Below are positions 46,904-53,394 of a DNA stretch of 64,000 nt, piece by piece. Source of the DNA: Thermoplasmata archaeon. GTDB lineage: Archaea; Thermoplasmatota; Thermoplasmata; Thermoplasmatales; Thermoplasmataceae. The stretch's first letter is position 1; each line of letters opens with the position of its first letter. A model generated the notes under the pieces. That model was not told the origin of the DNA and searched no databases. It was given only the letters and a program-made list of their open reading frames with translations. The DNA lies in assembly GCA_021817255.1 (NCBI GenBank), contig JAKAVO010000004.1, positions 1-64,000 on the forward strand, in the 5' to 3' direction. The position numbers and the translations under genes are program-made.

Positions 46904-46988
46904 GCGGAGATTGTCGAGCTAGGCTAAAGGCGATGGATTTAGGGTCCATTCCCGTAGGGGTTCGCCGGTTCGAATCCGGCTCTCCGCA
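46904..46988 (+). tRNA. tRNA-Leu (anticodon TAG)
   Basis: 7-bp acceptor GCGGAGA/TCTCCGC, anticodon stem ATGGA-TTTAGGG-TCCAT, long variable arm, GGTTCGAATCC T-arm. Confidence 0.95.
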
Positions 46989-47119
46989 TATTATATTAAA
47001 ATGCTCAATTGATAGAAATGAGAGTTCTTTGCTGCAATATATCCAATATCATACAGATACAGCCGGTATAAGGGATTCATGGCATTGTCAGGAATAATAC
47101 TATAAGGCAGAGCAACGAA

Positions 47120-47156
47120 ATGATAAAAATATTATAATACATTTTATAAAAATATC
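47120..47156. repeat. Direct repeat ATAAAAATAT x2 (47123 and 47146)
   Basis: Identical 10-mers 23 bp apart upstream of the wHTH regulator at 47196. Confidence 0.5.
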
Positions 47157-47195
47157 ACAATGCTATTAACCAACTATAAATACAACTAATGCAAT

Positions 47196-48173
47196 ATGAT
47201 TCAGAGAGTGCAAAGTGAGTTGCCGCTTGATGACATATCAAAGGAGGTCATAAGAAAGTTCCAGTGGCCCAGGGGGGAAAGTTCTAAATTCACCAGCAGG
47301 CCTTCGGTCTACAGAATGGCACAGGAATTTCAGGTACATCCAAAGGTCATCAAGTCAAGGATAAACAGCCTTTTTGAGGCAGGAGTGATTCGTGACATAA
47401 AATTCTTTGCAGACAGCAGATTTGTGCCATGGAATCGTTATTTTATATTATGTAAGACTTCAAGATGCCTGCCGCAGGAAATATACAACCATTTTAAGGA
47501 CCTTTCTTTCGTTGAGCGGTTAATATTTGGGACTATCAAGTTGCCAAATTCCACAGAGGCAGATACAGAAGTAACAAATGAGATGGAATTTCTGAGCATT
47601 TCCATAATTGCATCAAATAAAGCAGACATGAAAAGGAAAACCAGCTTCATAGAAAAAAAGCTTGGGCATTCACTGGACATCCTGGAAATAACCAACGATT
47701 TCCAGCATAAGGAAAGGTTAGTGACCGCAGGCGAACACATCATATTAAATGCAATACTGTATGAGAATCCACTGACCCTGAACATTGCCGTGATGTCGCA
47801 AAAGCTCGCAATTCCAACACGGACAGTACGCAGGAAAGTTGAAAAGATGCTCGAAGAGGGAGTTATTTATCAGGAAGTTTCTCTCGACACAAGTATGGCC
47901 CAGGACACTCTGTTGCCAAGCATAATAATGGTGGGGGATTATGGGAAATGGCTGCCTGGCATACGTGAGTCAAAGCCCCTGCAAGAGAGGCTGTTGCTCT
48001 ATAAAAACTGGTCAAGATTTTCCTTTTTCATATTTTATGCTGAATCATTCTCAAAAGTCGATCAAATAATTGCAGCAGCAAAAGAAATTGACCCTGCAAG
48101 CATGCTTACATACAGAAACGGGTCTTACAATAACCCATATATAAAGTACCCTTTGCCTGGAACTGGAAAATGA
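47196..48173 (+). CDS. Transcriptional regulator with two winged-HTH segments
   Basis: VYRMAQEFQVHPKVIKSRINSLFEAGVIRDI and NIAVMSQKLAIPTRTVRRKVEKMLEEGVIYQ. Confidence 0.75.
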   Translation: MIQRVQSELPLDDISKEVIRKFQWPRGESSKFTSRPSVYRMAQEFQVHPKVIKSRINSLFEAGVIRDIKFFADSRFVPWNRYFILCKTSRCLPQEIYNHFKDLSFVERLIFGTIKLPNSTEADTEVTNEMEFLSISIIASNKADMKRKTSFIEKKLGHSLDILEITNDFQHKERLVTAGEHIILNAILYENPLTLNIAVMSQKLAIPTRTVRRKVEKMLEEGVIYQEVSLDTSMAQDTLLPSIIMVGDYGKWLPGIRESKPLQERLLLYKNWSRFSFFIFYAESFSKVDQIIAAAKEIDPASMLTYRNGSYNNPYIKYPLPGTGK

Positions 48174-48314
48174 AAATGCCTATATTGACATGCATTTTAT
48201 CAACAGGTATAATTTATCTTTGACTTGCAGGGTGGAAAACGGCTAAAATCTGGCACTTGCAAACTATTGGGAAGATGCCAACACAAACCCAAAACTGAAT
48301 TCCCACGATAATGA

Positions 48315-50867
48315 ATGTCACAATCCAGCACTTTTCGTATCGTAATGTATAAAATACAGTCAAATGATCGTTTTTGTATGAAAAATTGTTCTCATCGAGT
48401 GGAAATGCTAAAGGCGAATGCCCTGGTTTTCATCGTGGTAATTGTGCTCATGGCCACTTCATTTGCAGTGGCAACCAGCCATGTGAATCGTGCATCAAGT
48501 CGAGGTGGCAGTTACCTGCCTTCTCAGCCCAGTTCAGGAAGCAGTTCTGTCAAACATTACAACCTGACGCTTGATGAGAAGGGTCTTCCGGCAGGAGCCT
48601 GCTGGGATGTGTACTTCGAGCAGAACGGAACATTTCAAACTATATTATCCTATAACAGCACAATGGTTATCCCTGCTCTAAACGGTTCTCACTGTATATA
48701 TCTTCAGAACGACTCCGGTAACTCTTACTGGTATGGCTATTCAGGCAATTTTAATAATTCTGGCCGTTCGTTTGGCTCTGTAACGATCAATGGAGGCCCC
48801 AAAACTGTAGACGTTACATACATCCGGGATTACTATATTAATTTCACAGAAACAGGTCTTCCGGCAACCAATAACTGGTGTGTAGGGGTGGACAATTCTG
48901 TATATTCAGTGACAAATTCTGCATATCATCCAATACTTGAAGAAAACGGAACATGGAGTTATTGTTTTAGTACGAAAATGTCAGGATTCTACGCATCTCC
49001 TCAAAGTGGAACGGTAACCATTTCCGGTCACAACGTTACTGTTGCTTCCAAATTCACCACTTCTTCTCCAGGACATTACCCCTTAGAATTCACAGAATCA
49101 GGTCTTCCAACAGGCATGGCATGGTATGTGAATCTCAGCAATGGGGATCAGTCTGGTGCAATCACAGGAACATCATTTTCATTTTCTCTGTTGAACGGAA
49201 CATATAATTATACGGTGAGTACGTTATCTGGCTACTCTCCATCTCAATCATCAGGTTCAATCACAGTTAATGGACAAAGCCAGTACATACTAATAACATT
49301 CACAAGTACTAAGCCAACTCCTCCGCCTAAGTGGGCATTCGCAGGTGCATACGCAAATTACAATATCAAAGGCTTTGCGCCAATAGGTAAAGGAAATTTC
49401 ACTTTGCAAATTACAATACTCTCTGTGAATGATACCAATGAATCGATCGGTGTAGAGATGAATGCATACAATTCCACTTCAAACCACCTCCAATATGAAA
49501 ACATTTCCTGGTCTAATTTTTTCCCGTTTATGATCGATCAACAGATGCTATCAGATCTCAATAATGCTTCTTTTGCTAATTCTCATAACGTGACAACAAA
49601 CGTAACCGTTACAACAGCTGGAGGGAAATTCCTAACAGACGAAGTCTATTCTAGCTATAACGGAACTGTTTTCAGAGTGTATTATGATCGCAATTCAGGC
49701 GTACTCGTATTACTTAACTTTTCGAATTCAACTTCGAACGCAACTTTCGAATTAGAATCAACTAACATAATAACAACAGCAACCCATGCCTATGCTATAG
49801 ATTTCACCGAATCCGGTCTCCCGTCTGGAACTGCATGGTATGTTAATTTAAGCAATGGCATGAAGTCAGGTGCAATCACAGGATCATCATATTCAACCTC
49901 TGTGACTAATGGATCATATACTTACACAATATCAACAGGAGACAAAAAATATTCGCCGTCACCATCTTCCGGATCACTAACGGTGAATGGTGCTTCAGTC
50001 TCCAGGGCTGTTAAATTCTCCGAAGTGGAATACACGGTAACATTCAAGGAATCTGGCCTTCCATCAGGAACCAGGTGGTATGTAAGCCTCGAAGACAACT
50101 CCAAATCATCCACAGCAAGCGCAATTACATTCACTGTACCAAACGGAACATACACTTTTGGGGTGGATTCATCCCTGAACATGTCTGGATATGCGCCCTC
50201 GAGCAGCAGTGGTTATGTGACCGTTAATGGTGCAAATAAGATAGAGAACATATCTTTTTCAGTCCCAAGCACTCACCCTCCAGTATGGGCATTCAAAGGA
50301 GCCTATGCAAATTACACCCTGAACCAGACCACGAAGACTTCGACTGAGCATGGTTACATATATTTCAGGATCATAAGCGTCAATAATGCAACCCAGATGG
50401 TAGAGATTTTTACCAAGGCGTACAATGGCACAAAAACAACAACCTCATATTACAACACTTCCTGGAACGATGTCTTTTTTGCCTATAATCAAACTGTACT
50501 GAGCATGTTAAACAACGGAACTCTTCCAGCTTCTTTCCACGGATCTAAAATAAAGAAGGATGTCACTATCAGCACGGCAATGGGAACGTTCACAACAGAT
50601 GAAATAAACACTACCCTGAATTCATCCTCTGCAGGATACGAAGTAATTTATGTGGATGTAAAAACTGGCCTTTTAGTGTCAGTATCCTTTTCGAACAGCT
50701 CAGGAAAGGTTACTGCAGGAATAGCTTCATCCAACATTCTGAACGCTAATCATAAGCCTTCTGGCTCTTTCTCTCTGTCACCAATGGAGCTATATGGCGC
50801 AATAGGGGGGGTTGTGGCAGTTGTTGCGGTGGTCTCCGCGATTTCAATCATAAGAAAGAGAAGATAA
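48315..50867 (+). CDS. Cell-surface repeat protein (FTESGLPSGTAWYVNLSNG-type repeats), C-terminal TM; ATG 48405 also possible
   Basis: At least five ESGLP/NGTYTY repeats, two copies of a WAFxGAYANY domain, C-terminal TM + IIRKRR. Confidence 0.85.
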   Translation: MSQSSTFRIVMYKIQSNDRFCMKNCSHRVEMLKANALVFIVVIVLMATSFAVATSHVNRASSRGGSYLPSQPSSGSSSVKHYNLTLDEKGLPAGACWDVYFEQNGTFQTILSYNSTMVIPALNGSHCIYLQNDSGNSYWYGYSGNFNNSGRSFGSVTINGGPKTVDVTYIRDYYINFTETGLPATNNWCVGVDNSVYSVTNSAYHPILEENGTWSYCFSTKMSGFYASPQSGTVTISGHNVTVASKFTTSSPGHYPLEFTESGLPTGMAWYVNLSNGDQSGAITGTSFSFSLLNGTYNYTVSTLSGYSPSQSSGSITVNGQSQYILITFTSTKPTPPPKWAFAGAYANYNIKGFAPIGKGNFTLQITILSVNDTNESIGVEMNAYNSTSNHLQYENISWSNFFPFMIDQQMLSDLNNASFANSHNVTTNVTVTTAGGKFLTDEVYSSYNGTVFRVYYDRNSGVLVLLNFSNSTSNATFELESTNIITTATHAYAIDFTESGLPSGTAWYVNLSNGMKSGAITGSSYSTSVTNGSYTYTISTGDKKYSPSPSSGSLTVNGASVSRAVKFSEVEYTVTFKESGLPSGTRWYVSLEDNSKSSTASAITFTVPNGTYTFGVDSSLNMSGYAPSSSSGYVTVNGANKIENISFSVPSTHPPVWAFKGAYANYTLNQTTKTSTEHGYIYFRIISVNNATQMVEIFTKAYNGTKTTTSYYNTSWNDVFFAYNQTVLSMLNNGTLPASFHGSKIKKDVTISTAMGTFTTDEINTTLNSSSAGYEVIYVDVKTGLLVSVSFSNSSGKVTAGIASSNILNANHKPSGSFSLSPMELYGAIGGVVAVVAVVSAISIIRKRR

Positions 50868-51446
50868 TCTCTTCTCTAATATATAGGGAGATATTCATGG
50901 TTTTACGGCAATACACAAATGCCAAAGCATTAGGCAGCATCACTGCTTTGATCATTGTCATCATAATAACTGGCGTGGTATTTGTTCCTATCTTTAACGC
51001 ATTGTCTGAAAGGGCCTCTTCAGGGTCAGGATTCGGATTTCCATCTTCTTCTCTTATCTCAAGCGCTTCCGGAGTAAACACCACTTTTCAGGAACAGGGA
51101 AAACCAAAAGCAACCAACGGAACAGAACTAATATATAATTCAGGCATTGTTTCCGGGGAATATGCCTATTATAACAGCACATCCAAAGGGTATTTCGAGC
51201 TTTTTGAGTTCAAGCTGTCCAGCAATGTTAGCAGCCGCAACTTCTATTCCCACTATTATGCACTGTTCCATACTATCTGGAAAGGCAATGCATCAAGGGA
51301 CAATATTTCTGCCAATCAGTCTCTCCTTGGAACCACTTATTTCTACTTCTCTGGAATTGCATTCACGCCAATCAGGGTTTCCGTAGGATTTAACGGAAAT
51401 TATGCGTTTTTCCTTGAATATCTTGGCACTTCCGCTGTCGATATTA

Positions 51447-52626
51447 GTCAACTACCCCACCCTGACAGGTGGTGCTTGTTGCTGGCCTCCCCCATGCCCG
51501 TAGGCATGGATTCATTGAACCGCAACGATTGGCTGGTTGGCAACAGCCTGAAGTACTCAGATCTACCAAGTACCTCAATGTTTCTTGAGGCGTTAAGATC
51601 GGCGTGAAGCTGTAAGTTGCAATTTTTGCAGTGGAATTCTGATCCATTCCTGTTTTGTTTGGATATGTGTCCGCATCTTGAGCATGTCTGTGATGTGTAT
51701 CTTGGATCAACAAAGATCACGGACTTGCCTATGTCTTTGGCTTTGTATTCCATGAACTGCTCCAGTTGGAACGGTGACCATGATCCAAGCTTATGGTTGA
51801 ACTTCTTGCCATTCTTCTTTTTCCTCATCTTCGCCGTCTCGAGTTCCTCAAGTGCAAAGACATCAAATGGGAGATTCACGATTTTTTTTGATATCACATG
51901 ATTGGCATTCTGCATGAACCGTCTCTCTCTTCCGCTCATTTCCCTCAGTTTGCGATGAGCGGAACGAGTGCCCGCATGCTGCAATATCTTTCTGTTGTAC
52001 TGATATCTTCCCTTGACATCTTTTAAATGCCCTGAATTAAAGAACATATTGTTAGACAATACTGCAATATTCTTTATGCCCCGGTCTATTCCTACAACGC
52101 TTGCATCCTTTTTCTTCACTGTTTCATAATCTGCATCATCCACCTCTACCTGGATCATCACAAAAATCTTCCCTTCCTTTGTGTGGATCACAACCTGTGC
52201 ATTCGTGTATTTTCCCGTGTGTTTCTTTATGAGTGGTGAATCTGCCACAGGAAATACCAGTCTGCCTTTGATTGTCGCCAATGATATGGTGTGGCTGTCA
52301 GGATAGAACTTGAAAGTTCTCTGATCATACCTGATTGTGTGCGACTTCCGGTGTATTTTTTTCATAAGTTTTGTCTGTTTTAATGATTCTGATGCTGTAT
52401 CCCTTGCAGTCTGAACTAATGCGGATGGAAGTGTTGGTATCTTTTCCCTAACATCTTTATACGTTCCCCTGTTCAGCTTGTTCTTGTTAAACGTTTTCTC
52501 CAGGAATCCATAGTCCAGAACTATCTGGCACGCTTCCCTGAACTGCCTTCCCGTCTCCAAGAGGGAGGCATCATAGGGAAGTTTCAGTTTAATAGTCCTG
52601 AACATTATTTATTAAATTGCATTACA
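51447..52626 (-). mobile_element. Solo tnpB IS200/IS605-type element (no tnpA)
   Basis: Intact tnpB; right-end hairpin CCACC-TGTCAG-GGTGG; boundaries inferred from restored host frame, with a 3-nt (AGT) ambiguity. Confidence 0.75.
51448..52605 (-). CDS. tnpB: TnpB RNA-guided nuclease (RuvC-like, zinc ribbon)
   Basis: RuvC VGIDRGIKNIAV, FALEELETAKM, CSRCGHISKQNRNGSEFHCKNC zinc ribbon, HADLNASRNI. Confidence 0.94.
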   Translation of the reverse strand: MFRTIKLKLPYDASLLETGRQFREACQIVLDYGFLEKTFNKNKLNRGTYKDVREKIPTLPSALVQTARDTASESLKQTKLMKKIHRKSHTIRYDQRTFKFYPDSHTISLATIKGRLVFPVADSPLIKKHTGKYTNAQVVIHTKEGKIFVMIQVEVDDADYETVKKKDASVVGIDRGIKNIAVLSNNMFFNSGHLKDVKGRYQYNRKILQHAGTRSAHRKLREMSGRERRFMQNANHVISKKIVNLPFDVFALEELETAKMRKKKNGKKFNHKLGSWSPFQLEQFMEYKAKDIGKSVIFVDPRYTSQTCSRCGHISKQNRNGSEFHCKNCNLQLHADLNASRNIEVLGRSEYFRLLPTSQSLRFNESMPTGMGEASNKHHLSGWGS

Positions 52627-52749
52627 GTACATTAATGCTGCCTTTCGCTTTCATCCCCTCGCCAAGTCAAGAAGCCTTCCAGCTCACAATGGATAAAAAC
52701 GTGACTTAACATAAATATATGGTTTTTCATCCTATAACAACCACTTGTT

Positions 52750-53394
52750 CTAACCTATTTTCAATTTATAATAATTGCAGTATTGCTTAATGTTGCACTG
52801 GCTGCACAATGGGGAAACAGGTTTGCATACTTTTTTTCCAAACTCCACCATCATTGGGTTAAGCCCGAGCCATAAATCCTCAGGGATCAGCCTCCTGAGT
52901 TCCTGCTCTGTGGCATCCGGATCATCTGAGCCAGACCAGCCTATTCTTCTGCTGATTCTCTGGACATGGGTATCAACAGCAATGGCAGGAACGTTAAATC
53001 CATCTGCAAGCACTACATTGGCGGTCTTCCTTCCCACACCCTTTATTTCGGTTAGTTGCTCAATGGTTGCCGGCACTTTGCAATTGTATTTGTCCTTTAG
53101 CAGCTTTGCCGCATCAATCACCCTCTTTGCCTTTACGGTCTTGAATCCTACCCTGTCAATTATTGATAGCACATCTTCATATTTTGCCTCTGATAAGCCA
53201 TTGCAGTCCTTATATTTCTCATACAGCCCCCTGGCCGCCTTATCCGTTATAGCGTCCTTTGTCCTGTGGGACATTATGGTGCCAATCAAAACCCAGAATG
53301 GGTCAGAAAATTCAAAATGGTGGAGAGGGCTTTGGTCTCTCATCAAACTGATTATTTCAGAGAGAGAATGCCTGTTGTTGTCTTCATCAGCCAT
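52750..53394 (-). CDS. nth: Endonuclease III (Fe-S)
   Basis: TEIKGVGRKTANVVLADGFNVPAIAVDTHVQR; C-x6-C-x2-C-x5-C cluster. Confidence 0.95.
   Translation of the reverse strand: MADEDNNRHSLSEIISLMRDQSPLHHFEFSDPFWVLIGTIMSHRTKDAITDKAARGLYEKYKDCNGLSEAKYEDVLSIIDRVGFKTVKAKRVIDAAKLLKDKYNCKVPATIEQLTEIKGVGRKTANVVLADGFNVPAIAVDTHVQRISRRIGWSGSDDPDATEQELRRLIPEDLWLGLNPMMVEFGKKVCKPVSPLCSQCNIKQYCNYYKLKIG

What the first reader, a model, noticed from the sequence alone, without database searches (positions are those of the whole stretch)
50897..52709. TnpB element interrupts a membrane-protein gene and the host frame is restored exactly on removal
Seen in sequence: the 5' ORF runs in frame to ATT A (51446), after which the right end of the tnpB element begins. 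Beyond the tnpB start, 52627 onward reads GT ACA TTA ATG CTG..., giving ...GTSAVDI-STLMLPFAFIPSPSQEAFQLTMDKNVT* (stop 52707-52709). Deleting 51447-52626 (1180 bp) yields one ORF of about 210 codons with no target duplication, as expected for single-strand IS200/IS605 transposition. Only a 3-nt ambiguity (AGT) remains in the breakpoint. This looks like a recent, potentially reversible gene knockout.
Basis: partly seen in the sequence, partly recalled or inferred. Interest (0 to 1): 0.72.

Follow-up and report, generated by a model that had tools for sequence, protein, structure and literature searches.

The report
TnpB transposon in membrane-protein gene tail

Summary
The TnpB element and the interrupted gene are real; the exact restoration is not. 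Alignment with relatives' elements, and a natural empty site in a sister genome, put the left end at 52692, next to a TTTAT target (52697-52693, minus strand). The element is 51447-52692 (1246 bp), without target duplication. The 'restored' tail LPFAFIPSPSQEAFQLTMDK is the antisense of the element's left end; nine other copies read FAFIPLPGQGVFPLT-like there. Correct removal still gives one open frame, 188 aa ending VDINKNVT, but an open frame is expected by chance and the conserved tail is absent, so the sequence right of the element is probably not the gene's original continuation. The gene keeps 183 of about 190 codons plus 53 element-encoded residues; 'knockout' is overstated. The element is a tnpB-only IS200/IS605 (IS1341-type) element with nuclease motifs intact and a covarying right end. 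New member of a known kind; low interest.

The parts
50897..51446 (+). Interrupted gene: 183 codons of a small protein with one N-terminal membrane helix; in the genome as it stands it reads on into the element to 51607 (236 aa).
   Evidence: homologues in nine related genomes; no Pfam family.
51447..52692 (-). Complete tnpB-only IS200/IS605 element, 1246 bp, corrected boundaries.
   Evidence: Left-end and right-end alignments of relatives; natural empty site of a 1245-bp relative.
51448..52605 (-). tnpB, 385 aa, intact ORF; RuvC motifs GIDRGIKN (172), ALEELE (251), HADLNASRN (334); zinc-finger CSRC (308), CKNC (326).
51447..51541 (-). Element right end, probable omega-RNA scaffold, overlapping the 3' end of tnpB; ends GTTGAC.
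   Evidence: Conserved in 25 copies with covarying helices. RNA not observed; no Rfam match.
51427..51446 (-). Predicted 20-nt TnpB guide, TAATATCGACAGCGGAAGTG, taken from the interrupted gene.
   Evidence: Inference from position directly 3' of the right end, by analogy with ISDra2 (PMC8612924).
52644..52692 (-).
52693..52697 (-). TTTAT target site, predicted TAM.
   Evidence: TTTAT directly precedes 14 of 15 aligned left ends and stays behind at the empty site.
52693..52749 (+). 57 bp between the element and the nth stop codon; origin unresolved; lacks the gene family's conserved tail.

Best explanation
A 1246-bp tnpB-only IS200/IS605 element (51447-52692, minus strand) was inserted 3' of a TTTAT site close to the 3' end of a small membrane-protein gene, by single-strand 'peel and paste' transposition, presumably catalysed by a TnpA acting in trans. 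Its right end probably doubles as the omega-RNA scaffold and its guide is now the adjacent gene sequence, so TnpB should re-cut the site if the element leaves, which favours retention. The gene is altered only at its C-terminus. The sequence right of the element does not carry the family's conserved tail, so removal closes the frame (188 aa) without recreating the family C-terminus; most likely the right flank was replaced after insertion, by deletion or by recombination between element copies. Shown: boundaries, target, intact ORF, covarying right end, missing tail. Inferred: the trans TnpA, RNA-guided cutting, and the later loss of the tail.
For: Left ends of relatives' elements align through 52692 and are preceded by TTTAT with unrelated flanks before it. 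A 1245-bp relative is absent from a sister genome with a seamless joint after TTTAT and no duplication, and so is a 369-bp mini-element. Homologues end VDINNTAEAVI[ML]QM. TnpB domains and motifs. Right-end covariation.
Against: No TnpA is encoded in the element; the only Y1 transposase found in the (78% complete) assembly is on another contig. No strain-level empty allele of this very site was found. The reciprocal piece with the missing tail was not found in the assembly, so loss of the tail after insertion is not proven.
Confidence: 0.85

Rival explanations
1. One reading: the element ends at 52626, and 52627-52709 is the gene's own 3' part, restored exactly by deleting 1180 bp.
For: The joined frame is open for 210 codons.
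Against: 52627-52692 is shared by element copies at unrelated sites; homologues have a different, shorter C-terminus; an open frame of this length is common by chance.
Confidence: 0.02
2. Clean insertion: before insertion this lineage's gene already ended VDINKNVT, so removal of 51447-52692 really would give back the pre-insertion gene.
For: Corrected join is in frame, 188 aa against 190-193 aa in homologues, and gives the conserved VDIN; no target duplication, as in the verified relative.
Against: The first codons after the joint (N, K) are dictated by the TTTAT target itself; the AVIxxM tail is kept by all intact homologues read, including distant paralogues, and is absent here.
Confidence: 0.35
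3. The right flank was replaced after insertion, by a deletion ending within 52 bp of the element or by recombination between two element copies, so the two flanks come from different places.
For: Conserved tail missing; the 57-bp flank matches neither the 3' side of the gene's homologues nor that of nth in relatives; the three-gene cassette lies elsewhere in relatives while the tRNA-Leu to nth interval holds other genes in G010.
Against: No second full copy in the assembly and no reciprocal product found.
Confidence: 0.5
4. Assembly chimera: contigs from two places were joined through the repeated element.
For: Fragmented metagenome-like assembly (54 contigs) and an element family that is multicopy in relatives.
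Against: Gene order on both sides of the join agrees with the single-contig genome G010; only one full copy lies in this assembly.
Confidence: 0.08

Closest known systems
ISDra2, IS200/IS605 family, Deinococcus radiodurans (PMC8612924)
   Same: TnpB with RuvC motifs; right end directly followed by the guide sequence; insertion 3' of a T-rich pentamer that stays on the left side (TTGAT there, TTTAT here); no target duplication.
   Different: ISDra2 carries its own tnpA; here only tnpB is present. Sequence similarity is at family level only.
IS1341-type (tnpB-only) elements and PATEs of haloarchaea (PMC3119063)
   Same: tnpB without tnpA, near-terminal palindromes, short targeting oligonucleotide, accompanied by transposase-free derivatives that share the ends.
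   Different: Other archaeal order, other sequence family and target; here the mini-elements keep the whole covarying right end.

Membership tests
IS200/IS605, tnpB-only (IS1341-type) | TnpB protein with OrfB_IS605 and Cas12f1-like zinc-finger domains | tested here: met
   PF01385 and PF07282 above cut-off; matches to solved TnpB structures.
IS200/IS605, tnpB-only (IS1341-type) | Insertion 3' of a fixed short target without duplication | tested here: met
   TTTAT at 14 of 15 left ends; seamless empty site of a close relative. For the window copy itself by homology only.
IS200/IS605, tnpB-only (IS1341-type) | Structured left and right ends | tested here: inconclusive
   Right end: covarying helices. 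Left end of the window copy: folding no better than shuffles, conserved in sequence only.
IS200/IS605, tnpB-only (IS1341-type) | No tnpA in the element | tested here: met
   One long ORF fills the element; the only Y1_Tnp match in the genome is on contig C51.
OMEGA (TnpB with omega-RNA) nuclease system | Right-end RNA guiding DNA cleavage next to a TAM | not testable with these tools
   Needs RNA sequencing and cleavage assays; predicted guide and TAM are given as inference.
   Homologues end VDINNTAEAVI[ML]QM; the joined products end STLML...DKNVT (reader) or VDINKNVT (corrected).

The most novel reading that the evidence does not exclude
The element's left end plus a surrogate right end moved the adjacent three-gene cassette (47196-51446) as one single-strand unit into the tRNA-Leu to nth interval, which would explain why the gene stops at the element's right end while the left flank is unrelated to the gene.
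Probability: 0.03. Interest if true: 0.5.

Novelty: new member of a known kind. Interest (0 to 1): 0.18.

Why it matters
Mainly as a caution: the breakpoints of IS200/IS605 elements cannot be set by asking which deletion keeps a frame open, because the left end can itself be open in antisense and mimic a host C-terminus. The corrected ends, the TTTAT target and the covarying right end define a tnpB element family and its mini-elements in this archaeal family well enough for a TnpB and guide-RNA test.

Tried and rejected
Rfam on the locus and on a mini-element gave nothing useful. The flank 52693-52749 compared with the 3' flanks of eight homologues of the interrupted gene and of 13 nth genes showed no similarity above shuffles. 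A right-end copy at the left border of the cassette, needed for the one-ended transposition idea, was not found. The one scan of genome contigs for the host protein returned a single homologue and no strain-level empty allele. A degenerate left-end pattern was written with wrong spacing and does not match the window either, so its zero result is void. Single-strand folding of the window's left end was no better than shuffles.

Full report
Observation. The + strand ORF starting at 50897 reads to GATATTA at 51446, then continues into the element and stops at 51607 (236 aa). On the minus strand, 51448-52605 encodes a 385-aa TnpB with PF07282 and PF01385 domains, matched by solved TnpB and Cas12f structures, with RuvC motifs and zinc-finger cysteines in place.

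The left breakpoint is wrong. I collected copies of the element from related genomes and aligned the DNA upstream of their tnpB starts. The window sequence up to 52692 aligns with their conserved left end: GTGAGCNGGAAGNCC, TTGACCTGGC, GGGATGAAAGCGAA. A separate BLAST with the 110-nt left-end region finds the same in many copies with unrelated flanks, and TTTAT stands directly before 14 of the 15 left ends inspected. At the other end, 22 of 25 copies end in GTTGAC, which is window 51447.

A natural empty site confirms the rule. The copy in G008:C35 is absent from the sister genome G009:C16, where the flanks are joined as ...GGTATTTAT|GTCTAAA..., one substitution from the G008 flank. This gives an element of 1245 bp that starts directly after TTTAT and ends with GTTGAC, without duplication. 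A 369-bp mini-element in G009:C49 behaves alike against G008:C17, with a few substitutions around the joint. Applied to the window, the element is 51447-52692, 1246 bp, with TTTAT at 52697-52693 on the minus strand.

Antisense translation of the left ends of nine other copies gives FAFIPLPGQGVFPLT-like peptides, most followed by DK. The 66 bp of left end are open in that frame, and 66 is divisible by three, so the wrong and the right join share the frame and the stop. At random window positions a frame stays open for 27 or more codons with probability 0.35, so the open frame is no evidence.

The host gene. Homologues at 42-63% identity occur in nine relatives. They are 190-193 aa where the start is clear, with C-terminus VDINNTAEAVI[ML]QM or close to it; more distant paralogues keep an AVIxxM(Y)-like tail. 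With the correct boundary the joined protein is 188 aa, ending VDINKNVT. The N and K codons come from the TTTAT target itself, and the conserved tail is absent. A degenerate DNA pattern for the tail has no match in the whole own assembly (78% complete). So simple removal closes the frame but does not recreate the family C-terminus. The interrupted gene still keeps 183 codons, so loss of function is not shown.

Surroundings. The gene belongs to a three-gene cassette (47196, 48315, 50897) that lies in other places in G011, G032, G037 and G053. In G010, a single-contig genome of the same genus, gene order agrees with the window on both sides, but the interval between tRNA-Leu (window 46904-46988) and nth holds other genes. 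Similarity between the two genomes stops just after the tRNA (46994). The 57 bp between the element and nth match neither the sequence 3' of the gene's homologues nor that 3' of nth in relatives. I therefore think it most likely that the right flank was replaced after insertion; a lineage-specific C-terminus before insertion is not excluded, nor is an assembly chimera.

How it works. By established knowledge of ISDra2 (PMC8612924), TnpA excises such elements as single strands next to the target motif, and TnpB with the right-end RNA re-cuts the empty joint. Here the right-end structure is supported by covariation: 95.5% of cells paired, 8 of 28 pairs with two-sided changes, and covariation score 0.236 against 0.143 in shuffles, with none of 500 reaching it. 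Part of these sequences also encode the TnpB C-terminus, and the covariation does not tell an RNA from a single-stranded DNA function. The predicted guide TAATATCGACAGCGGAAGTG and the predicted TAM TTTAT are inferences. The only Y1 transposase found in the genome is on another contig, beside a diverged tnpB.

Verdict. A real, ordinary tnpB-only IS200/IS605 element with corrected boundaries. The headline claim of exact restoration is not supported.

Noticed in passing
L056 660-1028 (G009:C49), L054 about 194-566 (G009:C52), G008:C16:20660-21025; in the own genome L060 about 896-1094 (G000:C45): Mini-elements of about 370 bp and about 200 bp without tnpB keep the same left end and the whole covarying right end (possible omega-RNA scaffold); the 369-bp one is recently mobile (empty site in G008:C17). 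They resemble the PATEs of haloarchaea; whether they make guide RNAs for TnpB in trans is open.
   Followed up: partly
window 46904-52750; L113 9900-13425: The interval between tRNA-Leu and nth is variable between species of the genus: surface-protein cassette here; in G010 a putative toxin-antitoxin pair, metabolic genes and a decayed tRNA-like copy near L113 11090. It looks like a tRNA-linked integration hotspot.
   Followed up: partly
G000:C51:52866-54057 (L004): A tnpA plus diverged tnpB element whose left end has the same layout (TTTAC, GAGC, hairpin, GGGATGAATGCGA); a candidate source of TnpA in trans.
   Followed up: no
G021:C34, G021:C51, G009:C46, G026:C50, G026:C8: Right-end copies of the family lie within a few hundred bases of contig ends, which suggests that these repeats break assemblies and are undercounted.
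   Followed up: no
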